A stretch of 64,000 nt of DNA from a virus. The notes under the pieces are model-generated. The model saw nothing but the letters and a program-made list of their open reading frames with translations. It did not search any database and was not told where the DNA came from. Below, piece by piece: positions 7,523-38,478 of the stretch. Made by a program: the position numbers and the translations under genes. The stretch lies in the IMG/VR virus record IMGVR_UViG_3300025127_000009, positions 62,001 to 126,000 of that record; one strand, 5' to 3'. Within the stretch, counting starts at the first letter, position 1; every line of letters starts with the position of its first letter.

Positions 7523-7523
7523 G

Positions 7524-7758: not shown

Positions 7759-8301
7759 TTAGTCCTCCGGGTGTGTATGTTTAAAAATAAAACTTATTAG
7801 TTTTCTAATAGATTCTTCAACACTTTCTTCATTTGTGTTAATTATAAGATCCGCATTAGATGGTTTTTCATATGGATCTGATATACCTGTAAAATTACGT
7901 ATTTTATTCGGATCATCATCTGGCAATAGAGCCCTTTTGTATAAACCTTTAGGGTCGCGTCCCACAAGAGTGTCTAGGTCACAATCTACAAAAACTGTTT
8001 TTGCCAACGAATTGTTCTCTAGAACTTCTTTTCTAATATCATCATAGGGGTTGATGGCAGACATGATGCAAATAACATTATTTCTAGAAAGTACTTTACC
8101 AACAAATGAAAGTCTTCTGATATTTGTGTTTCGATCTTCTTTTGAAAAACCTAAATCTTTACACAAACCCTCTCTGTACTCATCGCCGTCTATAACCTCT
8201 ACGTTATAACCCATCTCTTTGAGTGTTCTTTGCACTCCAAAACCAATAGTTGATTTTCCTGCTCCACTTAAACCAGTCATTTGAATAAAAATTCCTTTCA
8301 T
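7759..8301 (-). CDS. cysC: Adenylylsulfate (APS) kinase
   Basis: 180 aa. Phosphorylates APS to PAPS, the sulfate donor for sulfotransferases. P-loop TGLSGAGKST at residues 9-18, DGDEYR at 38-43, FSKEDRNTNIRR at 52-63 and DPKGLYKRA all match APS kinase. Full length for the family, no ATP-sulfurylase domain attached. The ATG at 8299-8301 overlaps the upstream stop (TGATG). It sits one gene from a sulfotransferase, so the phage appears to make PAPS for its own glycan sulfation rather than for sulfur assimilation. Confidence 0.93.
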   Translation of the reverse strand: MKGIFIQMTGLSGAGKSTIGFGVQRTLKEMGYNVEVIDGDEYREGLCKDLGFSKEDRNTNIRRLSFVGKVLSRNNVICIMSAINPYDDIRKEVLENNSLAKTVFVDCDLDTLVGRDPKGLYKRALLPDDDPNKIRNFTGISDPYEKPSNADLIINTNEESVEESIRKLISFIFKHTHPED

Positions 8302-8708
8302 CACACAGACTCCATTAAATGTTTTCTAACTAGATCATGAATGGAAGGATCGACATTTTCTTTCCAGGCGTCACTGTTTTCAACAATCTGATTTCTTATA
8401 CTAGTTGCTGAAATGAAGCCGACATTTTGAGGTGGTACGTGTTCATTAATTTCATATCCGACGCCACGTCCGTAGTTCACACTTTCAATATCAGGAATTC
8501 TAATTACCTGCACTTGCTCAGTATTGCCATAAACTTGCTGTATCATATTGATTGTCTGGTCTGTACTAAATGGATTTTTTGCATCAGGGGGAATATCTCT
8601 AACTGCTATTAACACTGGTATCTCTTTTGCTAACTTTTGATCTATCAACCACTTATGACCATTGTGAAAGGGTTGCCAGCGTCCTATAAACAATGCTTTT
8701 TTAACCAT
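8301..8708 (-). CDS. HxGH-type nucleotidyltransferase (NadM/cytidylyltransferase-like)
   Basis: 135 aa. FIGRWQPFHNGH (HxGH at 15-18) and ISATSIR near residue 100 are the signature motifs of the nucleotidylyltransferase superfamily that includes NMN adenylyltransferase, cytidylyltransferases and ATP sulfurylase. Size is closest to NadM-like enzymes. It is wedged between APS kinase and a sulfotransferase, so a role in sulfate activation or in activating a glycan precursor is possible. Substrate cannot be told from sequence. Confidence 0.75.
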   Translation of the reverse strand: MVKKALFIGRWQPFHNGHKWLIDQKLAKEIPVLIAVRDIPPDAKNPFSTDQTINMIQQVYGNTEQVQVIRIPDIESVNYGRGVGYEINEHVPPQNVGFISATSIRNQIVENSDAWKENVDPSIHDLVRKHLMESV

Positions 8709-9405
8709 TTGCTACTTCCTCCTTCATGTATCCTAAGGTTTTAAGGCAAGATTCAAATGCCGGTATTTCAAATTCATCACATATTTCTTTATAAGCATTC
8801 AAGTCTTTTCCTATAGACTGTGTACCTAATTTTCTTTTGCCATAATTTTGCTTTGCAGACTCATCACCTGCTCTGGCCAAAACAGAAACATTCCATTCAA
8901 AAACCCAATCTTCAACATAATCGGGGTAATTTTTAAAACTGTGTTCTGATTCTAAACCAAATCTTTGCTCTATTTCGTTCTGTATTCTGCCCGGATATTT
9001 AATTAGATCTTCATACCTAACCTCTAAATCTATTACATCTTTAAACATTCCTCTTTGCCTAATCGATTCAATCCAGCGACGAGGTTTTACCCATTTACCA
9101 TCAGACAAAACAACATCTCTGCCATCTCGTACAACATTTATAATTGCTACACTTTCTTTTTTAATTGTATTGTGTTGCTCTTCAAAATTAGGCATCAAAA
9201 CATTACTTAACAAGGCAGGCGGGTGCCTTTTGCCGACGACGAAAGGTTTGTCGCTCTTATATTTAATAAAATCTTCAAAAGACAATTCATGCCCATCAAA
9301 TCCTTTCTTATAAAGAACATCCATATTCTTAAATGCATAAAACATTCTCAATAATAGTGTTGTACCAGACTTTGCACAGCCTGTAATAAAAATTTTCTTA
9401 CTCAT
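8701..9405 (-). CDS. PAPS-dependent sulfotransferase
   Basis: 234 aa. The 5'-phosphosulfate loop GCAKSGTTLLL at residues 9-19 and the 3'-phosphate motif INVVRDGRDVVLSDG define a sulfotransferase. Start at ATG 9403-9405, which overlaps the upstream TAA (TAATG) and has GGGAGA 4-5 nt before it. PAPS would come from the APS kinase two genes downstream. The likely acceptor is a sugar made by the adjoining glycosyltransferases; this is inference from context. Confidence 0.88.
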   Translation of the reverse strand: MSKKIFITGCAKSGTTLLLRMFYAFKNMDVLYKKGFDGHELSFEDFIKYKSDKPFVVGKRHPPALLSNVLMPNFEEQHNTIKKESVAIINVVRDGRDVVLSDGKWVKPRRWIESIRQRGMFKDVIDLEVRYEDLIKYPGRIQNEIEQRFGLESEHSFKNYPDYVEDWVFEWNVSVLARAGDESAKQNYGKRKLGTQSIGKDLNAYKEICDEFEIPAFESCLKTLGYMKEEVANG

Positions 9406-10028
9406 TATATCTCCCAAGTTTTGTATTCTGGATCTTTTGTTTTGTTATTATCATGCATGCGATAACGATAAAATGGAATCTTCAAGTGATCTATCTTGTA
9501 ATCTTGTCCCAATCTTTTTCTTAACTCTTCTTCTTCTCTGTGTCTCATCTTTTCATTGTACCCACCTGATGCTGTGAATACATCCTTGCGATACATTATA
9601 CCACATGAAATGTTTTGTTTTTCTGCATACCTTCTTTCTAAAACGTTCTCGAAGTCATCAACCATCAGATAGTCGCAAGAAACGCAGAATACATCATGAT
9701 TCGCTTCTAGATAAGTTTTCATTATATAACACATATCTGCGTTAACATAGTCATCAGCATCAACTCTAATAAAAAATTGACCTCTTGCGTGTTGTATACC
9801 AACATTACTCGCTACAGCAATTCCTGAATTTTTAGATGTGCTAACTAGTTTAATTTGATCTTTAAATGGATCCATTATCTCAATTGAATTGTCTGTGCTG
9901 CAATCATCTACAACGATCACTTCATGCTTAACTATTCTCTGATTTAAACAACTTCGTATTGCTCTAGGCACATACCTACTGTAATTGTAATTTGTTATTA
10001 TAATTGAAACATCAGGATTAGAACTCAC
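9405..10028 (-). CDS. Family 2 glycosyltransferase
   Basis: 207 aa GT-A fold. Landmarks: VSIIITNYNYSRYVPRAIRS, VIVVDDCSTDNS and the metal-binding RVDADDYVN. A second conserved block HREEEELRKRLG corresponds to the ED-type catalytic segment. Soluble, no membrane helix. Located in the overlapping glycan operon between NeuB-like synthase and sulfotransferase. Confidence 0.85.
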   Translation of the reverse strand: MSSNPDVSIIITNYNYSRYVPRAIRSCLNQRIVKHEVIVVDDCSTDNSIEIMDPFKDQIKLVSTSKNSGIAVASNVGIQHARGQFFIRVDADDYVNADMCYIMKTYLEANHDVFCVSCDYLMVDDFENVLERRYAEKQNISCGIMYRKDVFTASGGYNEKMRHREEEELRKRLGQDYKIDHLKIPFYRYRMHDNNKTKDPEYKTWEI

Positions 10029-10731
10029 TGTTTTTCTCCAGTATTTCCAAGTTCTTAATTAATCTAACATATTCTTGAAGACTATCTTTGTCAAACGAGG
10101 CTATGTGCCCACCTTCTGTACCAGATTGAGCATATATGTTATTCGAAAAATGTTTTTCTAAATATATCGCTCCCCTCATATATGCACGTACAGATGCAGC
10201 AATACCCAAACTGTGGTCGCTGTATCCGGTATATGCCCCTTCTTTGAAGAAGGGCATTTTTCTAAGTTTTTCATCATCTAGATAAGTTGGATACTTTGAC
10301 ACACAAAAAAGGTAATCAATATTACCATCCTTGCCGTAAGGAAATTGTCCAAATTCGTGCATACCTGTTGAAATCAACGTTGGCTTATTTTCTGCTAAGA
10401 TAAGTTCTGAAAGTTCTCTATCAAACTTTGATGTTCTGCTAGCAATTTTATGCGTTTCGACATTGAAGTCTTGCAGCCACTCAAGCCTTTCTTTATCAAA
10501 TACAGATGCCATAAACTCTATGCCGATTAAACTACAGTAGTTTGATAACTCCAAAGCATCATTGTACGATATGTCTCTATATTTTTTATTCTTTACACCT
10601 AACAATTTTTCAGAATCCATCAACTGTACTTTTACAGCGTGCGCCCCTGATGTGAACGCATTCAAAGTCATTCTTTTTAATTCTTGTAAACTTCCGAAAT
10701 GCTGGTTGCACAAATCAACTATTATTTTCAT
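10018..10731 (-). CDS. NeuB/PseI/LegI-like nonulosonic acid synthase, catalytic domain only
   Basis: 237 aa TIM barrel of the sialic acid synthase family, which condenses a 6-carbon N-acyl sugar with phosphoenolpyruvate. Seen: GAHAVKVQ, EFMASVFD, KIASRTSKFD, PTLISTGM, FCVSKYPT, YTGYSDHSLGIAA and YLEKHF. The family is usually ~340 aa with a C-terminal antifreeze-like (SAF) domain; that domain is absent here and no separate copy is visible nearby. Adjacent formyltransferase, deacetylase and CMP-transferase genes support the assignment. Which nonulosonate is made cannot be told. Confidence 0.85.
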   Translation of the reverse strand: MKIIVDLCNQHFGSLQELKRMTLNAFTSGAHAVKVQLMDSEKLLGVKNKKYRDISYNDALELSNYCSLIGIEFMASVFDKERLEWLQDFNVETHKIASRTSKFDRELSELILAENKPTLISTGMHEFGQFPYGKDGNIDYLFCVSKYPTYLDDEKLRKMPFFKEGAYTGYSDHSLGIAASVRAYMRGAIYLEKHFSNNIYAQSGTEGGHIASFDKDSLQEYVRLIKNLEILEKNSEF

Positions 10732-11413
10732 TTAAAAACCTTTTTATTTTATCTTTACATGTAAGATTGATTTCTTTCATTATATCAGAATTCATATCTT
10801 TTGTTTGGAAAAGTTTACCTCGATGATTCAACCTCTTTCTATCCACATCATTATTGATGATGCTTTGCAAGTTATCAATCAACATCACAAAACCGAGTTG
10901 ACATGTTTTAAAAAATAACTTATCAGGTGTATCTGTCTCTACGACTTTAACTGTATCTTGGTCTATTATGTCCCCACCGTCAATAGATGAATCAATATAA
11001 TGCAATGTTGTTCCAATTTTGTCAAAATTTTCTTCATAAATTGCCCAATACGAACTATCAACTCCACGATAGTGTTGAACTAACCCAGTGTGTATGTTTA
11101 CACACCCATATTCAGGAATACTATAAATTTCTTTTGGTAAAAGTGGCGCACCAAAAATAAAACCAACTTTTGGTTTTTTTCTTCTCAATGAAGTTAAAAC
11201 TAGATCATCTTTTAAATGAGATTTGTTGCACATCAGATACATAGAACCAATGCCAGACGCTCTAGGCCAAAACCTTCTTTCTTGTTTTGTAAAGTTTTTA
11301 TCGCGATTTTCTTTTGGTACAACGATAATTTGATCTATTGGCAAATGCATTCTTAAGGTGTTTAAAAATTGTATGTGTCTAGCCTGGTTGGATGTGATTG
11401 CAAAATAACTCAT
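10715..11413 (-). CDS. Formyltransferase-family enzyme (sugar N-formyltransferase candidate)
   Basis: 232 aa. The core GCVNIHTGLVQHYRGVDSSY and GTTLHYIDSSIDGGDIIDQD contains the Asn-His...Asp catalytic residues of the 10-formyl-THF transformylase family (GART, Fmt, WbtJ/VioF-type sugar formylases). It overlaps the NeuB-like gene by 17 bp. In this setting formylation of an amino sugar on the way to a nonulosonic acid is the simplest reading; a methionyl-tRNA formyltransferase is unlikely from context. Confidence 0.8.
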   Translation of the reverse strand: MSYFAITSNQARHIQFLNTLRMHLPIDQIIVVPKENRDKNFTKQERRFWPRASGIGSMYLMCNKSHLKDDLVLTSLRRKKPKVGFIFGAPLLPKEIYSIPEYGCVNIHTGLVQHYRGVDSSYWAIYEENFDKIGTTLHYIDSSIDGGDIIDQDTVKVVETDTPDKLFFKTCQLGFVMLIDNLQSIINNDVDRKRLNHRGKLFQTKDMNSDIMKEINLTCKDKIKRFLNENNS

Positions 11414-12099
11414 AGTTGCACTGGCAATGTTCCTATTCTTTTAAATGCTTCTGCCCGCTTGTTGGGGCCAATAGAATACCCTCTTACTCTGGACAGTCCA
11501 TCTAAATAAAATTCAATTCCAGGTATAATACCTAACTGAGATGAGTACACTTCCATTGCATATTCTTTTGCAGAATACTCTTTAGTTATATCTACCACAA
11601 AGTCTGGATTTGAAAAGGGATCTAATATTTCAAAACTTAGTAATTGAGATACCGCATGTGGTTCACCCAATTCCTCTAAAATATTTTCTGAGCATTTCCA
11701 AGTTGCTTCTTCTACAATCATCGAGGTGTTTTTGTGATCTCTGTGCTTGCAGATCTGGTTGTGGGTCAGTATTATGTCTGGCTTTACTTCTCTTATTTTT
11801 TTAATAACAGAATGAAATGTTTTTTTGTTGTTTGTTACTTCTTGGCAAGGTATACCAAGAGTGTGTATCTTTGAAACCCCTAGTACATGACACGCCAAAG
11901 ATGCTTCTTTCATTCTAATATCTGTAATATTTTCTCTCATATTAATATCACAACCTTGTTCTATGCCTGTGCCTCCGTCAGTCATAAAACAAACTTGAAC
12001 ATCTGATCCAGATCTTGACCACTTTGTAATTGTTCCTCCGCACCCAATTGTTTCATCATCTTGATGTGCAGCAAAAACTAAAACTTTTTTACTCAACAT
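11410..12099 (-). CDS. PIG-L/LmbE-family N-deacetylase
   Basis: 229 aa. VLVFAAHQDDETIGCGGT carries the AHxDDE zinc motif, and THNQICKHRDHKNTS the third zinc ligand region (HxDH). The family removes N-acetyl groups from GlcNAc-type sugars. Next to a formyltransferase it suggests acetyl-to-formyl exchange on an amino sugar. Four-base overlap with the formyltransferase gene. Confidence 0.87.
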   Translation of the reverse strand: MLSKKVLVFAAHQDDETIGCGGTITKWSRSGSDVQVCFMTDGGTGIEQGCDINMRENITDIRMKEASLACHVLGVSKIHTLGIPCQEVTNNKKTFHSVIKKIREVKPDIILTHNQICKHRDHKNTSMIVEEATWKCSENILEELGEPHAVSQLLSFEILDPFSNPDFVVDITKEYSAKEYAMEVYSSQLGIIPGIEFYLDGLSRVRGYSIGPNKRAEAFKRIGTLPVQL

Positions 12100-12661
12100 T
12101 TATTCCCAAACTTTCTATTGCGTTGACATCTTCTTTTGAATGTACATCTATCAAATCGCAAACATAAGCCCCAGTCTTAACACTTAAATCTCTTTGATAA
12201 ACATACCAAGATTTCATTATTCGAAATGCTGCATTTTGCATCAGATTACCACCAACACTTATTAACTCATTTCTTTCATTTTGTAAAAAACAGTTAATTG
12301 CATCGTCCAGTATATTAGATGTAATTTGAGGTGAATTGGCTTGCAGAGAAATAACAACATCTTCTCTATCGCTTCTTTCTGATTCTTTTATAAAAGAATA
12401 ACAGTCTCTTATGGCATCCATCTTATAAACATGATCTTTAGATAAAGCAGGCGCTCTATCATGTACTTTGGCTCCATATGAGAGTGCTATTTTTTTTATC
12501 TCCAAATCTTCTGTTGAGACCCATACATCTGTTACAAACTTACTGTGTTGTGCAGCCTTTATAGCCCAAAACAACATTGGCTTACCCCATACAGGATATA
12601 TATTTTTCCTGTGAAGTCTTTTAGAACCTCCACGGGCAGGTATTATTGCGATTACTTTCAT
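12089..12661 (-). CDS. CMP-nonulosonate cytidylyltransferase (NeuA/PseF-like)
   Basis: 190 aa. IPARGGSKRLHRKNI is the CTP-binding signature of CMP-sialate synthetases; DVWVSTEDLEIKKIA and VVISLQANSPQ follow as expected. Compact, with no C-terminal hydrolase domain. Start ATG 12659-12661 chosen because AGAGG lies 7 nt upstream. It would activate the product of the NeuB-like enzyme for transfer. Overlaps the deacetylase by 11 bp. Confidence 0.87.
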   Translation of the reverse strand: MKVIAIIPARGGSKRLHRKNIYPVWGKPMLFWAIKAAQHSKFVTDVWVSTEDLEIKKIALSYGAKVHDRAPALSKDHVYKMDAIRDCYSFIKESERSDREDVVISLQANSPQITSNILDDAINCFLQNERNELISVGGNLMQNAAFRIMKSWYVYQRDLSVKTGAYVCDLIDVHSKEDVNAIESLGINVE

Positions 12662-12672
12662 TAACAAACCTC

Positions 12673-13389
12673 TTACTTAAAAAGGAACCCCATCACTTCT
12701 TTTGTGTTGCTTTTCTTAAGAACGAATCTTTCATTGGTGGCATCCCACTTGTTTCTCATTCTAACTATTTCCGATAAGTCTTCAGAATATTGAAACAAAT
12801 TAAACGTCTCTTCTTCGAAAAAATAAGATTCACTTGCCAAGTGAACAGACTCTTCAAAAACATTTCTTGGTCCCGGATTGTTTCCGGGCCTGTAATATAT
12901 ATCGTCAAACACAATACATCCACCTGGAGCAATAAGCCTGTAAGCGTTCTCAAAATCTTTCTTACATTGATCGTACTTGTGATTGCCATCGATGATTGTT
13001 AAATCAAAGGATGCATCTGGCATTTTTGATAATACTTCTGAAGAATCACCACAAACATAATTAACGTATTCCCCTAAATTAAATTTATTAATTAGTGATT
13101 TAGATTTTAACACAAACTCCTCGTTTATGTCAATTGTTGTAACTTTACCTTTTGCTTCAGAGTCTTCTAATGCTTTTGCCATATACAAACAACTAAACCC
13201 AGGTCCGGTACCAATATCTAAAATGTTTTTATATTTTCTATCTTTTATAATGCAGTAGATTGCTTGGGCCTCGCACACCTTAATAGACCCTTTTATGTAA
13301 TCGGGGATAGACGACACAGTATATCCCTCTTCGTACAGATCAACAAGGTCTTCTTTGTTTCTAGAAACTAGATCGTGTATATAACTCAT
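12673..13389 (-). CDS. SAM-dependent methyltransferase (class I)
   Basis: 238 aa. ILDIGTGPGFSCLYMAKAL (SAM loop), VTTIDINEEF (acidic loop end) and DLTIIDGNHKYDQCKKDF match the Methyltransf_24 / cephalosporin-hydroxylase-like group common in O-antigen clusters. Likely modifies a sugar or glycan hydroxyl; the acceptor is unknown. Preceded by a late-type TATAATTC box. Confidence 0.8.
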   Translation of the reverse strand: MSYIHDLVSRNKEDLVDLYEEGYTVSSIPDYIKGSIKVCEAQAIYCIIKDRKYKNILDIGTGPGFSCLYMAKALEDSEAKGKVTTIDINEEFVLKSKSLINKFNLGEYVNYVCGDSSEVLSKMPDASFDLTIIDGNHKYDQCKKDFENAYRLIAPGGCIVFDDIYYRPGNNPGPRNVFEESVHLASESYFFEEETFNLFQYSEDLSEIVRMRNKWDATNERFVLKKSNTKEVMGFLFK

Positions 13390-13408
13390 TTTTGCTCCCT
13401 GTTAAATT

Positions 13409-13416
13409 GAATTATA
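13409..13416 (-). promoter_or_regulatory. Candidate late promoter box TATAATTC
   Basis: Minus-strand GTTATAATTC overlapping the stop region of the upstream gene and 20 bp ahead of the methyltransferase ATG. No -35 is visible. Confidence 0.35.
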
Positions 13417-14443
13417 ACAGAACATTAAGTAAATTTTTAGATGAATTGGTGTGGTTATGAAGCCACTCTTCTTTTGCCTTCTCGAAAGACTGTTTTTTAG
13501 CGCCTTTTACGACTTGAATCATAGCATTCAACTTTGAAGTGTTAAAAGACGGATCCAGTGACTTAAGGTTTAAACAATAATCATAATCGTAGAGGTAAGA
13601 ATGGGTTACCCTATGTTTGTGAATTCTTCCATGTCTTTTCGCAGGTTTAATATCAAAATTAATTAAAGGAACATTATGCATTACGCATTCTTCTATCATT
13701 GTCGATCCAGAATTTACAACTAAATCACAAACCTCTAATAGTTCTTGAGTGGTATGTGGAAACCAAGAATCATCAAAAAATAATCTATTTCCATCCTCAG
13801 TTATTTTTTTTATTGTCTTTTTATCTATCGGATCTTTGCCTCTGCTTTTTATAAGAACCTGCCACCCCAGATCATTAAAGTTTTTAATTATGCTAATAGG
13901 CATATTGTGTAAATCTCTAGATTTTGGCCAAATGAACAAAACTTTTTTAGTATCTTTGTTTAGTTTATATTTTTCTAGAACCAGTTTGCTTTCTATGTCT
14001 ACGTCATATTTTGTTGTTCCAAAGTAAACATTTTTTTCAGTATTGCATTCATAGAAATCAGCGATATTTTTACTCGGCATCATAATCATATCATAAACTT
14101 GCTGATAATTAAACTTATGATAATTTAACACGAAATCAGTTTGATAAGTGGTTGTAACTTTTTTATCAACCTTGCATTGCGTTATTATATCCATACAAGA
14201 TTTCTCATTAGTAATAATATTATTTTTTACTTTTGTTAGTGAAGATATATTTTCTAAATTAACCGAATATTTTGAAATAAATTTTTCTAATTCTAAAAAG
14301 TTTTTTTCTAGCGATGGGCAGTTATACTTATTAGATTTTGCCATGTAAAACGTCGATGTTGCTCCGAGTTTCTTACCTTGTATAACTATCGGTGCAAAGT
14401 ATCTTAAGTGTGTCATTTCTCTGAGACAAAAATTCAGATCCAT
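13412..14443 (-). CDS. GT-B-like glycosyltransferase or glycerophosphotransferase-like protein
   Basis: 343 aa from ATG 14441-14443, which overlaps the upstream TAA (TAATG). The C-terminal half has the GT-B style nucleotide-binding segment ELLEVCDLVVNSGSTMIEEC followed by VPLINFD, as in UDP-GlcNAc epimerase, MurG-like and CDP-glycerol transferases. N-terminal half is not recognisable. A PseG-type UDP-sugar hydrolase also has a GT-B fold, so that role is an alternative. Operon context supports glycan synthesis. Confidence 0.6.
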   Translation of the reverse strand: MDLNFCLREMTHLRYFAPIVIQGKKLGATSTFYMAKSNKYNCPSLEKNFLELEKFISKYSVNLENISSLTKVKNNIITNEKSCMDIITQCKVDKKVTTTYQTDFVLNYHKFNYQQVYDMIMMPSKNIADFYECNTEKNVYFGTTKYDVDIESKLVLEKYKLNKDTKKVLFIWPKSRDLHNMPISIIKNFNDLGWQVLIKSRGKDPIDKKTIKKITEDGNRLFFDDSWFPHTTQELLEVCDLVVNSGSTMIEECVMHNVPLINFDIKPAKRHGRIHKHRVTHSYLYDYDYCLNLKSLDPSFNTSKLNAMIQVVKGAKKQSFEKAKEEWLHNHTNSSKNLLNVLL

Positions 14444-15339
14444 TATAAATTCTCTGCCACTTCTAACACTTTTGCCATGCAACTTTGCCAAGAATATGGT
14501 TTATATTTGTTTTTAATTAAAGAAATATTAGAATTTAACAAATCTACCAATTCACTCTCACTCGAAAACACATTTTCTTCTCCGGCAAATTCTACAGCAC
14601 CACCGCCTTCACTATAAACTATAGTTGGTATACCGCACGCTACACTTTCAATTATGTGATTTGGCCCAGGATCATATCTTGTACCACTAACATAAACATC
14701 GTACTTCGACAATTCCTCTCCTAACTCTAAACCGTGAAGAGGCCTAATCATCATCGAGTTGTCCAAAGACTTTTTACAATTTCCAATATACGTAAAAGTA
14801 AACTTATCATCACTCCTTACATATTCATTTAAGAACATATAATAATCTAAACCTTTCATTGGATTGTTTGACCAATGGTGAGTAACAATATTAATTTTGT
14901 TGTTATCAATCTTCTTTCTTGGTTGAAAGTGATTTAAATCAACACCATTATAAACTACTGAATGATTTTTACAGCCCCAACCCAACGACAGGTGATGATC
15001 TTTTATCCAATTAGAAACAAAAATTGTATGATCTGATATCAAACTGCAGTTTCTAAGCATTGCATTCATGTTGTTTGTATTTTTTCTAGCATCACACTCA
15101 TTAACTCTATGCATTATCTTGACATTGGGAAATCTTTTTTTAAAATTATAAATTTCATTTATAGAAACATTTGTACTGCCATATCTTGGATCTTGAATAA
15201 AGATTAAATCTATATCATCTTCCAAGTGAGGAGTTACAGTATGACCTTTCTTTTTAAACTGATCATAAAAGGCTTTTAAGAAGAGGTTGCCTCCACCCCA
15301 CGGGCCATCTACGGGTACTCTGTTTATAAATACTTTCAT
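14443..15339 (-). CDS. Family 4 glycosyltransferase
   Basis: 298 aa. Typical GT4 landmarks: GPWGGGNLFLKAFYDQFKKK near the N-terminus, VVYNGVDLNHFQP, and the donor-binding DPGPNHIIESVACGIPTIVY with E-x7-E spacing. Adds a sugar from a nucleotide donor to a growing glycan. Overlaps neighbours by one base on each side. Confidence 0.85.
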   Translation of the reverse strand: MKVFINRVPVDGPWGGGNLFLKAFYDQFKKKGHTVTPHLEDDIDLIFIQDPRYGSTNVSINEIYNFKKRFPNVKIMHRVNECDARKNTNNMNAMLRNCSLISDHTIFVSNWIKDHHLSLGWGCKNHSVVYNGVDLNHFQPRKKIDNNKINIVTHHWSNNPMKGLDYYMFLNEYVRSDDKFTFTYIGNCKKSLDNSMMIRPLHGLELGEELSKYDVYVSGTRYDPGPNHIIESVACGIPTIVYSEGGGAVEFAGEENVFSSESELVDLLNSNISLIKNKYKPYSWQSCMAKVLEVAENL

Positions 15340-16250
15340 TACATTTTTGATAAAACTGTTACAAATTCACTAAAACCTTGCGGTATGTGAATTTTTTTAA
15401 CGTTCTCTAGAGCCACTTTTGTATCAGTGGCACCACTATCTATATTACCGGGTTTAAATATAGATTTTTCACTTAATATTAAGCCTGCAGCACCAACATC
15501 TGTAGATAATATTGGAACTTCTATTGTTGCACATTCAAATATCGCTTGAGGTCCACCCTCATGGCGGGAAGCGACTATATACAAGTCTAAAGAATTATAT
15601 AGTTTGTTTAAATCTTCAAATGAAGGCAACTCATAATAGTGGTATTTTATACCAACATCTTCGAGCCTATTCATAACATATTGTCTGCGCCAGCCAGCCA
15701 GTAAAACTTCAACTTTTTTTGTTTTTGAAATTTGGTAAACGGCATCACAAAATTGATCTGGCCCTTTTTCTAGTTTTGGAGATTTAAGATCTGAGCCCTC
15801 GGTGTCTCTTTGAAAGGAACCAATCAAATACACGTCTTTTTTTATATTTAATTTTTCTCTAATTTTCAACTTGTTGTTCAGATTCTTCCACAAATTTTGA
15901 TTTACCCAAAACGGCTGCGTAAAAATAGGCTTGTTTGTAATATTTTTAATTTGATCTTTTGTTTTCTCACTAGGTACGTGATACATATCAACTAAAGCAT
16001 CACGATGCAAAAATTCGTTTAACTTAAAAGAATCAAACTTTTCTGGAACTATGTGATGAATGGTGCAAAGTACTTTTTTGCTTCGCAATATTTCTAATGG
16101 TATCCGCATCCACTGCCAGGGAGCGATAATCCAAATTATATCTGCTTCTAAGGGGTTTTCAGTAGAGATGTTCGGATTATTTTCATACCACTCTTTTCTA
16201 AACCTATCTACTACCCAAGATTCTTGTGGATTGTTTAGATATACCTTCAC
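15339..16250 (-). CDS. Family 4 glycosyltransferase
   Basis: 303 aa GT-B. YLIGSFQRDTEGSDLKSPKL marks the linker to the C-terminal Rossmann domain, and LYIVASRHEGGPQAIFECAT with VPILSTDVGAAG is the nucleotide-sugar site. N-terminus is shorter than in typical GT4 enzymes but complete in fold terms. Acceptor unknown. Confidence 0.83.
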   Translation of the reverse strand: MKVYLNNPQESWVVDRFRKEWYENNPNISTENPLEADIIWIIAPWQWMRIPLEILRSKKVLCTIHHIVPEKFDSFKLNEFLHRDALVDMYHVPSEKTKDQIKNITNKPIFTQPFWVNQNLWKNLNNKLKIREKLNIKKDVYLIGSFQRDTEGSDLKSPKLEKGPDQFCDAVYQISKTKKVEVLLAGWRRQYVMNRLEDVGIKYHYYELPSFEDLNKLYNSLDLYIVASRHEGGPQAIFECATIEVPILSTDVGAAGLILSEKSIFKPGNIDSGATDTKVALENVKKIHIPQGFSEFVTVLSKM

Positions 16251-16951
16251 TTTCTTAATATTACTATACCATTGTCTGTAGATTTTCTATCTTCATTGAA
16301 GAGGTGGCCATGAAAACAGACCAATTCTGCTGAATATGATGGATTATTTTGTAGTATTTCATCTACAACTTTTTTAACAGAAAATTTAGTTGGATGATAA
16401 TCATCAAATAAAATAATACCACCTTCGCGAACTAATTGATCGCATATCTGAAAATCTTCTCTGATAATATTAATGTTTTCGTGATCACCATCTATAAATG
16501 CAAGATCAATTTCACCCTCGTATTCTTGAACAATAAACGGTATTTCTGACCTATGTTTAAACGATATCTTTTCTTTTTCTTGCCCTTCCACCATTTGATA
16601 CAACTCATAATTGGAAACTTGAAATGGCTGATATGCAATTGCTTCATTCTTTTTTTGAAAGTGCGAAACTATATCAACTGTTATGATTTCTTCTATTTCC
16701 TCTTCCAGGGCAACAGAATAGCACGCTGTTCCTCTACCTGTTCCTATTTCAAAGAAAGTAGAAGCACCAATGTGATTTGCTATAGACTTAACTAGAAAAC
16801 ATTGTTCAGACCCATACGACATTTCACCGCTCTTCTTAGTCTTATCGACTCTTGTTTTCGTCAACATGCATATGCTAGTCAAAGGTTTTAAATCTTTATT
16901 CCAGTCGTAATTAATTTTTTCAAAATATTCTACTAAGTTAGTTGTTTTCAT
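16247..16951 (-). CDS. SAM-dependent methyltransferase
   Basis: 234 aa. ASTFFEIGTGRGTACYSVAL is the SAM-binding loop, IITVDIV the acidic strand, and DLAFIDGDHENINIIREDF plus IILFDDYHP the Methyltransf_24 pattern. Second such enzyme in the glycan operon; probably a sugar O-methyltransferase. Confidence 0.78.
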   Translation of the reverse strand: MKTTNLVEYFEKINYDWNKDLKPLTSICMLTKTRVDKTKKSGEMSYGSEQCFLVKSIANHIGASTFFEIGTGRGTACYSVALEEEIEEIITVDIVSHFQKKNEAIAYQPFQVSNYELYQMVEGQEKEKISFKHRSEIPFIVQEYEGEIDLAFIDGDHENINIIREDFQICDQLVREGGIILFDDYHPTKFSVKKVVDEILQNNPSYSAELVCFHGHLFNEDRKSTDNGIVILRK

Positions 16952-17846
16952 GTAATCTCCCTAAAAAATCGGAATATTGTTTTGCTACAAAAGTCATATC
17001 AATATTCGAAGAATGTAAATTCTCTCTTTTGTTTTGAAAATTTAAAGCAGGAGGATTGTACAAATCTAAAGGCTTAAAATCCCAATCTTCCTCTTCGATT
17101 ATCTGCGCGTCCAAACCTGCTATCTCTTTGGTTCCCCCAGATGAGGAACATATAATTTTACATCCAGATGCCCTTGCATCAACAACAACGTTAGGACAGT
17201 GATCTAGCCAAGCCAAATGAATAAAATAATCGCTTGCTTTATATACAGATATAAGATCGTTAATGTTTAAATTTCCAATATAAAAAATTCTTTTATGCTT
17301 TAAAATTTGAGACTTATCAACATCTCCTGCAATTATTAGACCGTCCCTTTCAGCACTGTGTTCTAAAAAATAACGAATATTTTCAGACAATCTTTTGTGT
17401 GGTCTCCAACTAGATGCACAACACCATATTTTATCGTAAGTTCTTGTGAAAGAATTATTCAATGGCCTTATGTTTTTTATATATTCAAAATCTGCACCAT
17501 TTCTTATAATTTTGTAGTTATGGTGATGTCCAAAATAATTAAATATGAGATCTTTGTTAAACTGAGTTTGGAATATAACTCCTGCCGCTTCATCGTATGT
17601 TCGTTTAATTAAACTATTCTGCATATTATAATCAAACTTGTTGTTAAAATAAATTCCATCCAGTCTTTGAACTAACGGGATGTTTTCTATTTTATTGTTT
17701 CTCTGTATAAAAGACAACTGTAGATCGAAGGCTTTATCAAACCTAAAAGTATGATCTAACAATTCTAGATATCTTTTAAGTTTGTTACCAAAGTGATTTG
17801 GGCCAGAAGTTGACATAATGTTTACGTTATCTAAAAATATGTTCAC
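16938..17846 (-). CDS. Family 4 glycosyltransferase
   Basis: 302 aa. KIWCCASSWRPHKRLSENIR and YKASDYFIHLAWLDHCPNVV followed by DARASGCKIICSSSGGTKEI are clear GT4 donor-site motifs. VPLVQRLDGIYF lies in the acceptor half. Overlaps both neighbours by a few bases. Confidence 0.83.
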   Translation of the reverse strand: MNIFLDNVNIMSTSGPNHFGNKLKRYLELLDHTFRFDKAFDLQLSFIQRNNKIENIPLVQRLDGIYFNNKFDYNMQNSLIKRTYDEAAGVIFQTQFNKDLIFNYFGHHHNYKIIRNGADFEYIKNIRPLNNSFTRTYDKIWCCASSWRPHKRLSENIRYFLEHSAERDGLIIAGDVDKSQILKHKRIFYIGNLNINDLISVYKASDYFIHLAWLDHCPNVVVDARASGCKIICSSSGGTKEIAGLDAQIIEEEDWDFKPLDLYNPPALNFQNKRENLHSSNIDMTFVAKQYSDFLGRLHENN

Positions 17847-18586
17847 AACGAAGATACCCTACCATACGGAGTTTTATTTGTTACAATCGACTCAATTCTT
17901 AATTGTTGAGCCCTGTGTGCTCTATCAACTGATATCGGATTCAATCTGTTGTAAATATACAAAACTTTGTTGATCAACGTGATTCGATCTGGGCCTGCCA
18001 TCTCCACCATCGGATACATCATAACCCTATCAAAAGTAAATTTATAAAACTCGTCATCTTCATCTATCATGTCTTTAACATTAATTTTTTCAAACAACTC
18101 TTTTTTGAATGTTCTAAGATGAGAAAAAGACCAATGTTTTTTTCTTATATTGGTGTTCCAATATTCTTCTGTTACATACTCTGGTGTTACCACTTGATAA
18201 TTATCATTTTGCATATATGACCCAACAGTTAACCAGCAATCGGTGCTGTTATACACAGAATTTAGATACGACAAAACATTGTTGTCTGCCAAATAATCAT
18301 CACCATCCAATGTTAAAATTATAGTACCATCTTTTGCTGTTGTTATGTGATCATATAAATTTTTAAGCGCTCTAACGTTTTTTTTATTTGATACTAATTT
18401 AAATTTTTTGTTTGAATTAGAAAGTATTTCTTCTACCTTCATTTGTGTATTATCTGTTGATGCATCGTTAATGTAAACAACATCAAAATTATCGTATTCT
18501 TGTTCTAATGCAGAATTAAGATTTTTTTCTACCCATTCTTCGCAGTTGTACGCTGGTATCACTATTGTAAAATGATTCGACTTCAT
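17843..18586 (-). CDS. Family 2 glycosyltransferase
   Basis: 247 aa starting at ATG 18584-18586, two bases after the upstream stop; an upstream TTG in frame is less likely. FTIVIPAYNCEEWVEKNLNS, VVYINDASTDNT and the DxD motif ILTLDGDDYLADNN define a GT-A enzyme. Confidence 0.85.
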   Translation of the reverse strand: MKSNHFTIVIPAYNCEEWVEKNLNSALEQEYDNFDVVYINDASTDNTQMKVEEILSNSNKKFKLVSNKKNVRALKNLYDHITTAKDGTIILTLDGDDYLADNNVLSYLNSVYNSTDCWLTVGSYMQNDNYQVVTPEYVTEEYWNTNIRKKHWSFSHLRTFKKELFEKINVKDMIDEDDEFYKFTFDRVMMYPMVEMAGPDRITLINKVLYIYNRLNPISVDRAHRAQQLRIESIVTNKTPYGRVSSL

Positions 18587-18588
18587 TT

Positions 18589-20685
18589 TTAAAATGCTTT
18601 TTGCCAAAAATACTTTGGTCTAGACTTTAAATATTCTACCGTTCCAGCGTAATCTTGATTAAACCACTCCTCGTCTTTGTGTTGCACTAAGTCGTTAATA
18701 TCTAATTCACAACCAAGCAACTTAGCCTCAATAACCATTCTTGGGCAAGTATCTAGACCAGATGGCTTAAAGCAAAGACCCTTCGACTCTGCTAGTTTTT
18801 GCAAAAATTCTTTGTAGTTCATATTCCACAAAACCTCGTAGTCATACTTATTTTCTCTACAGTGAGCCTCTGTTTCGTTTAGTCCCTTCACCCAACTTCG
18901 AGATCCAAGTACAACCCATTTGTCGTTCTTGTTCTTAGAAGAGTCTTGCAAATGATCAACAAAAGCAAAAAAACTTTCATCAAACAATGATGATAAAACG
19001 AACATGTTTTTGTTTTTTAATCCCGGTAATAGTGAGTTGTGTAAATTCATTTGTTCTTTTGACATAAAGAAGACAGATTTAGCGTTGTTGCAAAAACTTG
19101 TAAGCGCTTGGCCTCTATCTGTATTTTTGTAGTCGCATGTAGTTCTTTCCACCATTTCATATAGTTTTGGGTTTCTGTGTTTACAGAATTTGTAATCAAA
19201 CTCTACAAAACTATAGGATATGTTTGATTCTATTATATCCTTAATTATCTCATCGGTTAGCCCAGCAATATTGCCAAATACCCATTTAGCATCTGTGTTA
19301 TTGTTGATGAAATCTTTTGTAAGTTCTTTGCTATGCACTTTTACTTTTTTATTAGACTCGCAATTGCTAATTAGCGTTTGAAGGCTCATTTCCGCGCCAC
19401 CAACGTAGTCCTCTACAAACAAATCACTTACAAATATATATTCAGGTTTAACTAACCACTTCTCGGGAATTAGAGTATTAAGCATTTTCTCTAGTATAAT
19501 ATCTAAATTAACAGTTGACTTTAGGTGACTTGCTAACTTTTTTGCCCAAGAAAGATAAACACCATAATCTTTATAAACATTTCTTATCTTGTTTTTAAAA
19601 TCAAATTCTGACGGATAGCACCACATGGCATCTTGTTGTAAAACTCCGTCCCACACAGCCTCTTTTTGTATATGCCTTAAAGTGTAATCCACCTTTGAAA
19701 ACAAGGCTTTATTCTTCATCTTTTTAGTTCTTTTATTTCGGACTGGAGCGTATAGAAAATCCATATGTCCAGACCATCCAGGTGCTACAACTGGTAGTTC
19801 ATTGTATGCTGCTTCAAATAGTGGTAAACCAAAACCCTCTCCGTGGGTCGCACTAATGATGGCTTTTATTTTGGGGTGCTTATATAAAGAATTTATTTCT
19901 TCATCAGTCATATCTCCGTGCATAAAATACAACGAAGCCTTGCTGTCCTGTAAACCTTTAATTTCTATAAGTTGCTTGATTCTATTTAAACAATGCTCCC
20001 TATCTGCAATGCAGTTTTTTGCCATATTTGTTTTTAAAACTAATCCAACTTCTTCATCTTTAAATTCAGTCAAGAACCATTCTATTGTATTTTCTAAATT
20101 TTTTCTTATGCCCCACTGTGCTACGCAAAGAAAATTAAAATCTGTTTCTAATTCTAAATCTAAATCTGGACTATTTGGATACTCTCTGATAGGATAACTA
20201 ACGACTTCTACTGGCGCTCCGCAACCAACTCTTAACTCTTGTCCTGTCTTTTCATTTTTTGCTTGATAGAAAGTATTTTCAAATCCCCATTTTGCAAAAG
20301 TACTAGGCACAACTATTTTGCTCATCTCATATGATTTTTCAATCCAACTAGGAGCAACCTTGGTAGCCTCAATCCCGGCTGTGACACAAACACTGTAGGG
20401 CGCTTTCTTTTCAAACTCCACTGGAATTCCTATATGGATATGCACATCGAAATTTCTGTTTTCTTCTTTTAAAAGTTGAAACTTTGTTACTAAACTGTGA
20501 ATCCAATCTATTTCTTCACTATTGATACTTTGAAGCCAGTTTGTATCTCCCCAAGAAAGCGGTGAAACATATAAATCAAAATTTTCAATTCTTTTTCTTA
20601 ACGCTTGAAGCACTAACCTAGTGTGAACCCCGTATCCCGATCTTGTAAGCGCTGGGCCTTCTACTAATACTTTTACTACGCTCAT
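18589..20685 (-). CDS. Double-domain glycosyltransferase (two GT-B units)
   Basis: 698 aa, about twice the size of a GT4 enzyme. First unit: EGPALTRSGYGVHTRLVLQA, FNFLCVAQWGIRKNLENTIE, and AIISATHGEGFGLPLFEAAY. A second, more divergent unit from ~residue 415 opens with FVSDLFVEDYVGGAEMSLQT and ends with LCFKPSGLDTCPRMVIEAKL, a second donor site. It may add two sugars in succession, or the second unit may bind acceptor. A TATAAATA sequence just upstream lies inside the preceding gene. Confidence 0.8.
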   Translation of the reverse strand: MSVVKVLVEGPALTRSGYGVHTRLVLQALRKRIENFDLYVSPLSWGDTNWLQSINSEEIDWIHSLVTKFQLLKEENRNFDVHIHIGIPVEFEKKAPYSVCVTAGIEATKVAPSWIEKSYEMSKIVVPSTFAKWGFENTFYQAKNEKTGQELRVGCGAPVEVVSYPIREYPNSPDLDLELETDFNFLCVAQWGIRKNLENTIEWFLTEFKDEEVGLVLKTNMAKNCIADREHCLNRIKQLIEIKGLQDSKASLYFMHGDMTDEEINSLYKHPKIKAIISATHGEGFGLPLFEAAYNELPVVAPGWSGHMDFLYAPVRNKRTKKMKNKALFSKVDYTLRHIQKEAVWDGVLQQDAMWCYPSEFDFKNKIRNVYKDYGVYLSWAKKLASHLKSTVNLDIILEKMLNTLIPEKWLVKPEYIFVSDLFVEDYVGGAEMSLQTLISNCESNKKVKVHSKELTKDFINNNTDAKWVFGNIAGLTDEIIKDIIESNISYSFVEFDYKFCKHRNPKLYEMVERTTCDYKNTDRGQALTSFCNNAKSVFFMSKEQMNLHNSLLPGLKNKNMFVLSSLFDESFFAFVDHLQDSSKNKNDKWVVLGSRSWVKGLNETEAHCRENKYDYEVLWNMNYKEFLQKLAESKGLCFKPSGLDTCPRMVIEAKLLGCELDINDLVQHKDEEWFNQDYAGTVEYLKSRPKYFWQKAF

Positions 20686-21950
20686 AATACTTTATTTATA
20701 CTCCAATGTTTTAGATTTCTAGATTCCCAAGAGCCCTGTTCTTCATGAATTTTTGTCAGTAAATTGTCCCAAGAACTAATATAATTTTCCATACTATAAT
20801 TTTTCATTACGTGTTCTCGACCTTTTTTGCCAAGTTCTTCAAGTTCTTTTTCGCTTTTTGAAAACATTTCTACCATAGCGTTTGAAACTTCTTCACCATT
20901 TACTCTATCTTCATATATCCAAGGAACTTCTTGCGACCCTATGATTGCTTTAGAAGCAGGCTGCAAACCTATACCAAACCAATCTTTACCATTTGTTACC
21001 TGCTCTTGCAATCCGCCTGTCATGTTGACAATTATTGGTGTTTCAGTTGCAAGAGATTCCAACGTAGAGAGACCAAAACCTTCTGCATCAGATATGTTAA
21101 TTGTACAATCACAAGAATTATAAAGCACTGATAACTGTTCTATTGAAATTTTTTGGGTAGATAATTTAAATTGATCGTCATCTAGATTAAGTCGCTTTTT
21201 AATTGCGTATAAATCTTGACCATTTGGATCATTTGGCTCAGTATGCATAATAAGCGTTGCCTTATCTCTCCCCACCTTATCTAAGAAATCATTAAACCAA
21301 AATATTAACGAACCAGATTGTTTTCTTCTAGCGTTTCTGTTGTTCCAGAAAAATACAAACCTTTTGTTACCTTTTGAATCAATGCCTACTTGATTTTCTT
21401 TTTTAAAGTGTTCAATCGTTTTTGTGTCTTTTATTTTCTCAAAAACAGAATCGTTTACTGCGTGAGGTATATGATACAAATCAACCTCTGGCGCTACATT
21501 TGCTACAATATCATTCGTTACCTTACTAATTGTAACAATGGCGTCGTTGGATAAATACCACTTTCTATTGAAAGTAGGGTAAGGTAGGTTGTCCCACACA
21601 TGATAATAAACCAAAGGAGCCACAGATCGTACTTCATTTTCTATCTCCCACAACCATGTCCAAAATCTTGGATCTGTCATAATCCAAACAATATCTGGCT
21701 TTTGCGCATGTAAAAGAGCCCTCACTTGTTCTTTTGAGCCGTAACCATCTACAGGGAATATAACCCAATCATCTCCGTATTCTTCTGTTTTTATGGGTTG
21801 ATAATCGTGATGTTTTATGGCACCACCAAAACAAACAAACTGAAATCTGCCAGTTTTTAGAAGGCCTTCTATCATATATCTTGTTTGGGTGCCGACACCA
21901 GATGGCGCGAGGGGACTATCTGCCAAGCAGAAAACTTTTATTTTTTTCAT
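20682..21950 (-). CDS. Family 4 glycosyltransferase
   Basis: 422 aa, full GT4 length. N-terminal CLADSPLAPSGVGTQTRYMI, VTISKVTNDIVANV, and the donor site CTINISDAEGFGLSTLESLA with TPIIVNMTGGLQEQV. Likely the first glycosyltransferase of the block in order of transcription. Confidence 0.85.
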   Translation of the reverse strand: MKKIKVFCLADSPLAPSGVGTQTRYMIEGLLKTGRFQFVCFGGAIKHHDYQPIKTEEYGDDWVIFPVDGYGSKEQVRALLHAQKPDIVWIMTDPRFWTWLWEIENEVRSVAPLVYYHVWDNLPYPTFNRKWYLSNDAIVTISKVTNDIVANVAPEVDLYHIPHAVNDSVFEKIKDTKTIEHFKKENQVGIDSKGNKRFVFFWNNRNARRKQSGSLIFWFNDFLDKVGRDKATLIMHTEPNDPNGQDLYAIKKRLNLDDDQFKLSTQKISIEQLSVLYNSCDCTINISDAEGFGLSTLESLATETPIIVNMTGGLQEQVTNGKDWFGIGLQPASKAIIGSQEVPWIYEDRVNGEEVSNAMVEMFSKSEKELEELGKKGREHVMKNYSMENYISSWDNLLTKIHEEQGSWESRNLKHWSINKVL

Positions 21951-21953
21951 ATA

Positions 21954-22778
21954 TTACCTACAATGTTCAGTTTGATAAAATTCACAATATTTACAGGCTG
22001 TACGATTCTTAATAACGTTTCCTGCTTTAATGTTGTGTATCGCTTTTTTTAAATGCGCTAAAGCGTTACTTGTTTTTCTTTCTCCACTAGAAACTCTAAA
22101 TATCTCTGCTTTATCTTTTTTTGCAGTTCTTTTCAATAAAGCAAAATGTGTTTCAATGTTGTTCACATCAATATTATACTTCAAAGCGTAAAAGTTTTTA
22201 TACAAAGTTAACTGATATGAGATTATTTTATCTGTTTTCTTTTTCATGTCCCACCCCCAAGAACAAGTTTTCCAATCAATTATGTGATATTTGCCGTCTT
22301 CAGTTTTTAAGACGAGATCAATAAAACCCTTAAATTTATAATCTGTATCATGATCTTGTGTGCGAATATTTTCGAACAACATCTCTTCGACAGCAATCAC
22401 TTGATATTGATGAAAATGACTAGTTAATGATGGCAATATGTATTGTATGATATCGTCACCCTGTTTTCTCATATCTATTACAAGTTTTTTATTTAACTGA
22501 TGGGTTTTTGAAATTTCGGTTAACTCTTCCAAAAACTTTTTTTGAAATATGAGTTTTGCTTGTTCTATTTTTGAATTATCAACTACTAATTCTTCGCAAA
22601 CAAAATGTAAAGCCGTACCAAAAGCGGTGTATTCATTTCCCTGAAACTTTTTTATTTTGTCCAGATACACTAGTTTGTGCTTGTGGCTGCACTCCGTCCA
22701 CATCTTCATTTCTGAGTAACTTATCTTTTTGATTGGCGTTTGACCGACGTCTTGGAGTACTTTTAACTGATTTGACAT
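21954..22778 (-). CDS. PD-(D/E)XK nuclease with Fe-S cysteines (RecB/Cas4-like)
   Basis: 274 aa. SYSEMKMWTECSHKHKLVYL, AFGTALHFVCEEL, FKGFIDLVLKTEDGKYHIID and DWKT form the PD-(D/E)XK core. The C-terminal CKYCEFYQTEHC with the early WTEC cysteine resembles the 4Fe-4S cluster of Cas4/AddB-type exonucleases. Probably a DNA end-processing or recombination nuclease. Its first ~48 codons overlap the end of the gene at 22633-23016 in another frame. Confidence 0.82.
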   Translation of the reverse strand: MSNQLKVLQDVGQTPIKKISYSEMKMWTECSHKHKLVYLDKIKKFQGNEYTAFGTALHFVCEELVVDNSKIEQAKLIFQKKFLEELTEISKTHQLNKKLVIDMRKQGDDIIQYILPSLTSHFHQYQVIAVEEMLFENIRTQDHDTDYKFKGFIDLVLKTEDGKYHIIDWKTCSWGWDMKKKTDKIISYQLTLYKNFYALKYNIDVNNIETHFALLKRTAKKDKAEIFRVSSGERKTSNALAHLKKAIHNIKAGNVIKNRTACKYCEFYQTEHCR

Positions 22779-38454: not shown

Positions 38455-38478
38455 CAAATATTCCTAAAATAATCAATG

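What the first reader, a model, noticed from the sequence alone, without database searches (positions are those of the whole stretch)
7759..21950. Phage-encoded sulfated nonulosonic-acid glycan pathway inside late genes
A continuous minus-strand operon holds NeuB-like, NeuA-like, formyltransferase, PIG-L deacetylase, eight glycosyltransferase-type genes, two methyltransferases, APS kinase and sulfotransferase. With PseB- and PseC-like genes at 36.3-38.5 kb it covers most steps from UDP-GlcNAc to a CMP-activated sugar and its transfer. Location next to structural genes suggests glycosylation of virions, or remodelling of host surface during late infection. Sulfation of a phage-made glycan would be unusual.
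Basis: partly seen in the sequence, partly recalled or inferred. Interest (0 to 1): 0.85.

Follow-up and report, generated by a model that had tools for sequence, protein, structure and literature searches.

The report
Marine phage glycan-and-sulfation gene island
A large marine virus of bacteria carries a swappable block of sugar-building genes that very probably makes an acidic, sulfated sugar coat for the virus or its infected host; such sugar islands are known in phages, but the compact sialic-acid-type synthase and the sulfation gene set are new to them and can be tested directly.

Summary
The block lies in a hypervariable glycan island at a fixed locus, between an exonuclease and the late sigma factor, found across a whole phage clade including Flavobacterium and Microcystis phages.

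Inside it is a conserved module: GT-B enzyme, NeuA, (PIG-L, formyltransferase), NeuB, GT2, sulfotransferase, (NTase, APS kinase). All 11 related records with the sulfotransferase have NeuB-GT2-sulfotransferase in that order.

The NeuB belongs to a clade without the SAF domain, shared with SAR11 and other bacteria, where it again sits beside the same GT2 in 8 of 9 clear cases. It keeps the metal/PEP residues but has changed acceptor residues, so its sugar product is unknown. PseB/PseC at 36-38 kb do not belong to this pathway: no module-bearing relative has the PseB homologue, and PseG is absent.

NTase and APS kinase are partners across phages, sometimes fused and beside unrelated sulfotransferases, which suggests a compact PAPS-making pair. 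Whether virion or host surface is decorated stays open; I favour virion proteins.

The parts
7759..8304 (-). APS kinase (sulfate activation, PAPS formation)
   Evidence: Pfam APS_kinase 3.5e-47; above the NCBIfam apsK equivalog-domain cut-off, 179.6 vs 138.7
8301..8708 (-). small HIGH-type nucleotidyltransferase, partner of APS kinase; function inferred (adenylyl transfer)
   Evidence: CTP_transf_like 5.5e-5; nearest PDB relatives NMN adenylyltransferases; present or absent together with APS kinase in ten islands; 39 of 48 dereplicated phage loci have an APSK-like gene fused, adjacent or within 3 genes
8701..9417 (-). sulfotransferase
   Evidence: Sulfotransfer_3 4e-6, just over cut-off; both PAPS-binding motifs invariant in 10 relatives
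9405..10028 (-). GT2 glycosyltransferase (GT2a), constant neighbour of the SAF-less NeuB
   Evidence: Glycos_transf_2 8.3e-30; beside NeuB in all 10 ST-bearing islands read and in 8 of 9 cellular loci where a SAF-less NeuB was found
10018..10731 (-). SAF-less NeuB-family PEP-dependent ulosonate synthase
   Evidence: PF03102 3.7e-33; no SAF domain in the record; metal/PEP residues conserved against 1xuu but acceptor positions changed
10715..11413 (-). sugar N-formyltransferase
   Evidence: Formyl_trans_N 2.2e-13; next to NeuB in 8 islands and in one SAR11 genome
11410..12099 (-). PIG-L-type deacetylase
   Evidence: PF02585 8.3e-29; always together with the formyltransferase in 8 islands
12089..12667 (-). 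NeuA/PseF-type CMP-sugar synthetase, short form
   Evidence: CTP_transf_3 4.9e-23; best NCBIfam PseF, 93.8 vs cut-off 205.7
12673..13389 (-). methyltransferase
   Evidence: Methyltransf_24 3.3e-23
13412..14491 (-). GT-B fold enzyme (2-epimerase/hydrolase or transferase), part of the conserved core
   Evidence: no Pfam/PHROG match; AF2 pLDDT 85; Foldseek to UDP-GlcNAc 2-epimerases and TagF; in all 11 modules
14443..15339 (-). GT4-like glycosyltransferase
   Evidence: below the Pfam cut-off
15339..16250 (-). GT4 glycosyltransferase
   Evidence: Glyco_trans_1_4 6e-11
16247..16951 (-). methyltransferase
   Evidence: Methyltransf_24 5.9e-11
16938..17846 (-). GT4 glycosyltransferase
17843..18607 (-). 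GT2 glycosyltransferase (GT2b)
   Evidence: Glycos_transf_2 1.9e-19
18589..20685 (-). large GT4-type protein, conserved island entry gene 2
   Evidence: Glycos_transf_1 2.1e-8; conserved after the 422-aa GT in relatives
20682..21950 (-). GT4 glycosyltransferase, clade-wide first gene of the island
   Evidence: homologues in Flavobacterium, Microcystis and Rhodothermus phages and 155 IMG/VR stretches
21954..22778 (-). exonuclease, left flank of the island (PD-(D/E)XK nuclease in relatives)
   Evidence: PHROG exonuclease 4e-22; same neighbour in immuto and Mel-JY01
6275..6979 (-). late sigma factor (gp55-like), right flank of the island
   Evidence: PHROG late sigma factor 7.5e-4; conserved flank
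34021..34842 (-). GT2-like glycosyltransferase of the second, separate cluster
   Evidence: Glycos_transf_2 0.0044, below cut-off
34839..36314 (-). formyltransferase fused to a 2OG-Fe(II) oxygenase, second cluster
   Evidence: Formyl_trans_N 1.9e-15, 2OG-FeII_Oxy_3 3.2e-11
36311..37447 (-). DegT-type aminotransferase (PseC-like), second cluster
   Evidence: DegT 1.3e-84; PseC 234.5 vs cut-off 423.5
37444..38457 (-). NDP-sugar 4,6-dehydratase (PseB-like), second cluster
   Evidence: PseB 264.6 vs cut-off 407.8; absent from all module-bearing relatives

Best explanation
This is the hypervariable glycan island of a clade of marine T4-like phages, carrying a conserved acidic-sugar/sulfation module related to bacterial surface-polysaccharide genes. 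The SAF-less NeuB condenses PEP with a host- or island-supplied sugar, PIG-L and the formyltransferase swap an N-acetyl for an N-formyl group, NeuA activates the product as a CMP-sugar, and GT2a (perhaps with the GT-B enzyme) transfers it onto a chain begun by the clade-wide GT4 enzymes. The sulfotransferase then sulfates the glycan with PAPS, which APS kinase and its nucleotidyltransferase partner help to make. The most likely acceptor is a phage virion protein glycosylated in the cytosol. Shown: gene content, order, module conservation, domain and active-site make-up, relation to cellular NeuB-GT2 pairs. Inferred: all activities, the order of steps, the sugar and the acceptor.
For: Domain matches. 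Module order conserved in ten other phage islands, one of them (G003) partial. Short NeuB in 12 and the sulfotransferase in 11 of 50 related records, always one gene (GT2) apart. Among the 47 records found by the 422-aa GT alone, nine have both and 38 neither. NeuB-GT2 adjacency also in 5 of 5 SAR11 genomes and in 3 of 4 readable loci of other Pseudomonadota, the fourth cut at a contig end. NTase and APS kinase together in 6 islands and both absent in 4; paired in 39 of 48 phage loci and near unrelated Sulfotransfer_1/2 genes. The entry GT is conserved in phages of Bacteroidota and cyanobacteria, whose host glycans differ, which argues for a phage-encoded acceptor. No predicted membrane flippase, polymerase or ligase in the island.
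Against: No biochemical data. The NeuB has changed acceptor positions (E25 to D, D247 to G/A, no SAF Arg), so it could act on another substrate or be weak. Literature on similar cyanophage clusters favours host surface modification (PMC7824862; PMC9602691), and the same NeuB-GT2 pair lies in SAR11 surface-polysaccharide loci. No ATP sulfurylase family match at the NTase. Relatives with the sulfotransferase but without APS kinase (G002, G007, G009, G012) would have to use host PAPS. Records are uncultured; some are near-identical or share ancestry, so counts are not independent.
Confidence: 0.5

Rival explanations
1. The island remodels the host surface polysaccharide during infection: phage enzymes make the acidic, formylated, sulfated sugar in the cytosol, it is added to host lipid-linked glycan and exported by the host, blocking superinfecting phages or grazers.
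For: Standard reading of cyanophage LPS-type clusters. The SAF-less NeuB-GT2 pair is found in SAR11 surface loci beside ABC-transporter-like and UDP-sugar dehydrogenase genes, and the phage NeuB clade is sister to SAR11 members (98/96 support). Hypervariable content resembles O-antigen loci.
Against: No flippase, polymerase, ligase or membrane GT in the island. The entry GTs are conserved across phages of unrelated hosts. Benefit during one lytic cycle is uncertain.
Confidence: 0.33
2. The gene set completes a pseudaminic-type pathway from UDP-GlcNAc with PseB/PseC at 36-38 kb.
For: PseB- and PseC-like genes in the same record; NeuA scores best to PseF.
Against: The PseB homologue is absent from every module-bearing relative, including records of 190 and 193 kb. 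No PseG. NeuB far below the PseI cut-off. PseB/PseC sit 14 kb away with their own formyltransferase-2OG protein and GT.
Confidence: 0.08
3. The glycans are attached to phage DNA as hypermodified bases rather than to protein or lipid.
For: T-even phages glycosylate DNA (general knowledge); the record has many GTs and nucleotide genes.
Against: No hydroxymethylase was noticed among the large ORFs. Sulfated, CMP-sugar-derived oligosaccharides on DNA have no precedent known to me, and the island varies like a surface-glycan locus.
Confidence: 0.04
4. NTase plus APS kinase is not a sulfation pair but serves NAD or another nucleotide pathway, and the sulfotransferase uses host PAPS.
For: The NTase resembles NMN adenylyltransferases. 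In Stenotrophomonas phage Bhz60 a kinase-NTase fusion lies near NADAR and MazG-like genes. Several relatives have the sulfotransferase without the pair.
Against: The APS kinase here is a true APSK by curated cut-off. The pair recurs near unrelated sulfotransferases in other phages and sits in glycan islands and in a SAR11 surface locus.
Confidence: 0.35

Closest known systems
Cyanophage LPS/capsule-type gene clusters (P-SSM2, S-SSM7, S-SM2, S-SCSM1)
   Same: T4-like marine phages with a large, variable cluster of GTs, epimerases and sugar nucleotidyltransferases, in part near phoH (PMC3037559, PMC7824862, PMC9602691)
   Different: No NeuB or sulfation module is named in the passages read; here the locus is fixed between the exonuclease and the late sigma factor and holds a conserved NeuA-NeuB-GT2-sulfotransferase core
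Marine virus AG-345-L05 (Kyanoviridae) NeuB cluster
   Same: NeuB with a SpsF-like cytidylyltransferase, DegT aminotransferase and 2OG oxygenase in a glycan island
   Different: Longer NeuB (272 aa) of another clade, 26% identical; no sulfotransferase or APS kinase match
Flavobacterium phage immuto and Microcystis phage Mel-JY01 glycan islands
   Same: Same locus after the PD-(D/E)XK nuclease and homologous first GT
   Different: Different cargo; no NeuB, NeuA or sulfotransferase match
SAR11 and other Pseudomonadota loci with SAF-less NeuB + GT2
   Same: Same NeuB clade (100/100 support) directly beside the same GT2 family, in several beside a NeuA-like gene
   Different: Chromosomal polysaccharide loci, NeuA fused to a dehydrogenase in several, no phage-type sulfotransferase seen
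NeuB / PseI / LegI nonulosonic acid synthases
   Same: Pfam NeuB fold and metal/PEP residues
   Different: No SAF domain, changed acceptor residues, far below equivalog cut-offs
Bifunctional PAPS synthase (ATP sulfurylase-APS kinase)
   Same: APS kinase coupled to, and in some phages fused with, a HIGH-superfamily nucleotidyltransferase
   Different: The NTase is a 133-aa NMNAT-like protein, not PF01747 ATP sulfurylase

Membership tests
NeuB-type nonulosonic acid synthases | NeuB catalytic domain (PF03102) | tested here: met
   3.7e-33
NeuB-type nonulosonic acid synthases | Metal and PEP residues (1xuu T110, K129, S132, S154, S213, H215, H236) | tested here: met
   S76, K95, S98, S121, S171, H173, H194 in the alignment; conserved in relatives (S76 is S or T); residue roles from memory
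NeuB-type nonulosonic acid synthases | C-terminal SAF (antifreeze-like) domain | tested here: not met
   237 aa only, no SAF match in the record; absent in all short relatives
NeuB-type nonulosonic acid synthases | Scores over the equivalog cut-off for NeuB or PseI | tested here: not met
   103.9 vs 399.7 and 88.2 vs 340.3 bits
Pseudaminic acid pathway | PseG UDP-sugar hydrolase | tested here: not met
   no match at E up to 10
Pseudaminic acid pathway | PseH acetyltransferase | not tested
   no dedicated search; none was noticed among the operon genes
Pseudaminic acid pathway | PseB co-occurs with the NeuB module | tested here: not met
   0 of 12 module-bearing relatives
PAPS-dependent sulfation system | APS kinase | tested here: met
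   over the apsK cut-off
PAPS-dependent sulfation system | Sulfotransferase with PAPS-binding motifs | tested here: met
   Pfam 27.7 vs 27 bits; motifs invariant
PAPS-dependent sulfation system | ATP sulfurylase | tested here: not met
   no PF01747 match over cut-off in the record; the NTase is a candidate substitute only
Phage glycan (LPS-type) islands | Cluster of GTs plus sugar-activating enzymes in a T4-like phage, variable between relatives | tested here: met
Virion glycosylation systems | Glycan on purified virion protein | not testable with these tools
   needs mass spectrometry

The most novel reading that the evidence does not exclude
Phages carry a self-sufficient sulfation system: a 115-135-aa HIGH nucleotidyltransferase acting as a miniature sulfate adenylyltransferase, paired or fused with APS kinase, makes PAPS for phage sulfotransferases, and here it sulfates a new ulosonic-acid glycan made by a SAF-less NeuB and placed on virions.
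Probability: 0.2. Interest if true: 0.82.

Novelty: new variant of a known kind. Interest (0 to 1): 0.57.

Why it matters
Sugar islands in marine phages have been debated for years (functional or 'stuffer' DNA, host surface or virion; PMC3037559). Here one module keeps its order and active-site residues across ten phage islands while its neighbours are swapped, which argues for selected function. It names a small set of enzymes to assay. It extends phage chemistry to CMP-activated acidic sugars and sulfation, both almost absent from 50,697 catalogued phage records, and points to an unrecognised NTase-APS kinase pair that is common in uncultured phages.

Tried and rejected
(1) PseB/PseC as upstream steps: rejected on co-occurrence and missing PseG. 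(2) T4-type late promoter TATAAATA as evidence of late expression: 7 sites, 6.8 expected. (3) Assembly chimera: rejected, same flanks in ten contigs. (4) First AF2 model of 13412-14491 with four sequences was poor (pLDDT 53); redone with eleven. (5) Sulfotransferase profile against PDB: no match. (6) ATP sulfurylase in the record: none over cut-off. (7) Literature searches for phage NeuB plus sulfotransferase, nonulosonic acid, or APS kinase plus sulfotransferase gave nothing on this system; one paper states that phage sulfotransferase function is unclear (PMC10580990). (8) PurA-like gene as PurZ: it scores higher to PurA than to PurZ, both below cut-off.

Full report
What is there. The window is part of a 192,597-base virus record with T4-like features: large terminase, PhoH, head maturation protease, gp55-like late sigma factor, GroEL. 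Between the exonuclease (21954-22778) and FmdB-like/late-sigma genes (6275-7570) lie 17 tightly packed minus-strand genes. The sulfotransferase assignment by profile is marginal, but the two PAPS-binding motifs are invariant in ten relatives. APS kinase exceeds the curated apsK cut-off.

A fixed hypervariable locus. The gene next to the exonuclease (20682-21950, GT4) has homologues in Flavobacterium phages immuto, Microcystis phage Mel-JY01, Rhodothermus phage RM378 and a 484-kb uncultured phage, and 155 stretches in IMG/VR. In immuto and Mel-JY01 it also follows a PD-(D/E)XK nuclease, with one gene in between, and opens a cluster of GTs and sugar enzymes with different cargo. The finding is therefore the local content of a clade-wide glycan island. 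Similar clusters are known in cyanophages; published views are host-surface change or superinfection exclusion (PMC7824862; PMC9602691), and one paper leaves open whether they are only stuffer DNA (PMC3037559).

The conserved module. Reading ten relatives gives the order: GT-B enzyme, (methyltransferase), NeuA, (PIG-L, formyltransferase), NeuB, GT2a, sulfotransferase, (epimerase, UDP-sugar dehydrogenase), (NTase, APS kinase), FmdB, h101, late sigma. One of the ten (G003) holds only part of it. Upstream genes are swapped freely (heptose-type kinases and nucleotidyltransferases, carbamoyltransferase, WecB-like, SGNH hydrolase; assigned by eye). In 50 related records NeuB family genes occur in 18 above cut-off, the short form in 12, and this sulfotransferase family in 11, each with exactly one gene between NeuB and sulfotransferase. 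Among the 47 records found through the GT4 gene alone, nine have both and 38 neither. These nine are related, so the formal value (7e-10) only illustrates the link.

The NeuB. It belongs to a clade without the SAF domain (no SAF match in the record). Against N. meningitidis NeuB (1xuu, alignment) the residues I recall as metal and PEP ligands are kept, while two acceptor-side positions differ from longer phage NeuBs (E to D, D to G/A). Equivalog scores are far below cut-off. The same SAF-less form occurs in 5 of 297 Pelagibacteraceae genomes with clearly higher scores than full-length NeuBs and in 6 of 399 sampled Pseudomonadota. Next to it lies a GT2a homologue in all five SAR11 cases and in three of the four other loci where a short NeuB frame could be read; the fourth is cut at a contig end. 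The tree gives the SAF-less clade 100/100 support, the phage clade 100/99, and phages next to two SAR11 sequences at 98/96, one of which sits on a long branch. Acquisition from SAR11-like bacteria is thus plausible but not proven, and the host of this phage is unknown.

PseB/PseC are a different pathway. The PseB-like gene has a homologue in only one of 50 records, and that record lacks the module. PseG is absent. The genes 34021-38457 (GT, formyltransferase-2OG fusion, DegT aminotransferase, dehydratase) suffice on paper for a separate N-formylated 4-amino-4,6-dideoxyhexose and its transfer (inference from families).

Sulfation. NTase and APS kinase are present together in six islands and both absent from four others that keep the sulfotransferase. 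Beyond the island, the NTase has 243 relatives in IMG/VR. In 48 dereplicated loci, 39 have an APSK-like gene fused (4), adjacent (31) or within three genes (4); several of these loci are islands of the present kind. Unrelated sulfotransferases lie beside the pair in other phages: Sulfotransfer_1 directly before kinase and NTase (L231), Sulfotransfer_2 between APSK and NTase (L174). PHROG 10255 and Stenotrophomonas phage Bhz60 carry kinase and NTase as one protein, as does a SAR11 surface locus (L148). The simplest reading is a PAPS-making pair in which the NTase replaces ATP sulfurylase. By sequence, however, the NTase is closest to NMN adenylyltransferases and ATP sulfurylase is not matched there, so this remains a hypothesis.

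The unassigned core gene. 13412-14491 has no family match. With eleven sequences AlphaFold2 gives a confident GT-B fold closest to UDP-GlcNAc 2-epimerases and TagF. It could supply the NeuB acceptor (NeuC-like) or transfer a sugar.

Target. No predicted membrane flippase, polymerase or ligase lies in the island, and the entry GTs are shared by phages of unrelated hosts; both favour a phage protein as acceptor. The relation to host polysaccharide loci and the literature favour the host surface. I put virion proteins at about one half and the host surface at about one third.

Rarity. In 50,697 phage records NeuB is found in two phage records, both without annotation, this sulfotransferase in none, NeuA in no true phage, and APS kinase in four phage-labelled records.

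Verdict: observation confirmed; interpretation partly supported; a new variant of a known kind, with a testable sulfation pair as its most novel part.

Noticed in passing
window 38510-39406, 39728-40510, 40494-40919, 42177-43049, 42994-43509, 43862-44719, 45263-45613; L003:3999-6188; L007:5533-7869: Nine otherwise unrelated proteins share an N-terminal tag (such as MENWRKYLNE) in the first 35 residues; the motif is found in no other position in 46,628 residues of the record. It resembles T4 capsid-targeting sequences cut after LxE, so these may be capsid-packaged, injected proteins.
   Followed up: partly
window 4489-5961 and L002:16436-18166: The hub-like structural protein carries an amidase-type domain here, while its relative has a different C-terminal region with a peptidase-like HSHTLGQAVDIH motif: a swapped cell-wall enzyme on a shared N-terminus.
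   Followed up: partly
L013:6310-7338, 9986-10708, 11897-12721: One related phage island carries three different NeuB-family genes (342, 240 and 275 aa).
   Followed up: partly
window 32628-33632 and L007:16416-17453: The phage encodes a PurA-like adenylosuccinate synthase (nearer PurA than PurZ, both below cut-off) and an IMP dehydrogenase-like protein: purine supply genes.
   Followed up: partly
L007:12327-12710 and L007:10683-12278: Complete IscU iron-sulfur scaffold (over cut-off) beside a GroEL-like chaperonin in the phage record.
   Followed up: no
L174:104-814, L188:1917-2627, L170:2273-3004: In other phages the APS kinase is fused to a DUF2061 membrane domain (tested for L174; the others by sequence likeness), which would tether sulfate activation to the membrane.
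   Followed up: no
window 44001-62000: GC rises from about 0.34 to 0.40-0.46 in a stretch of mostly small, unassigned genes with five tRNAs.
   Followed up: no
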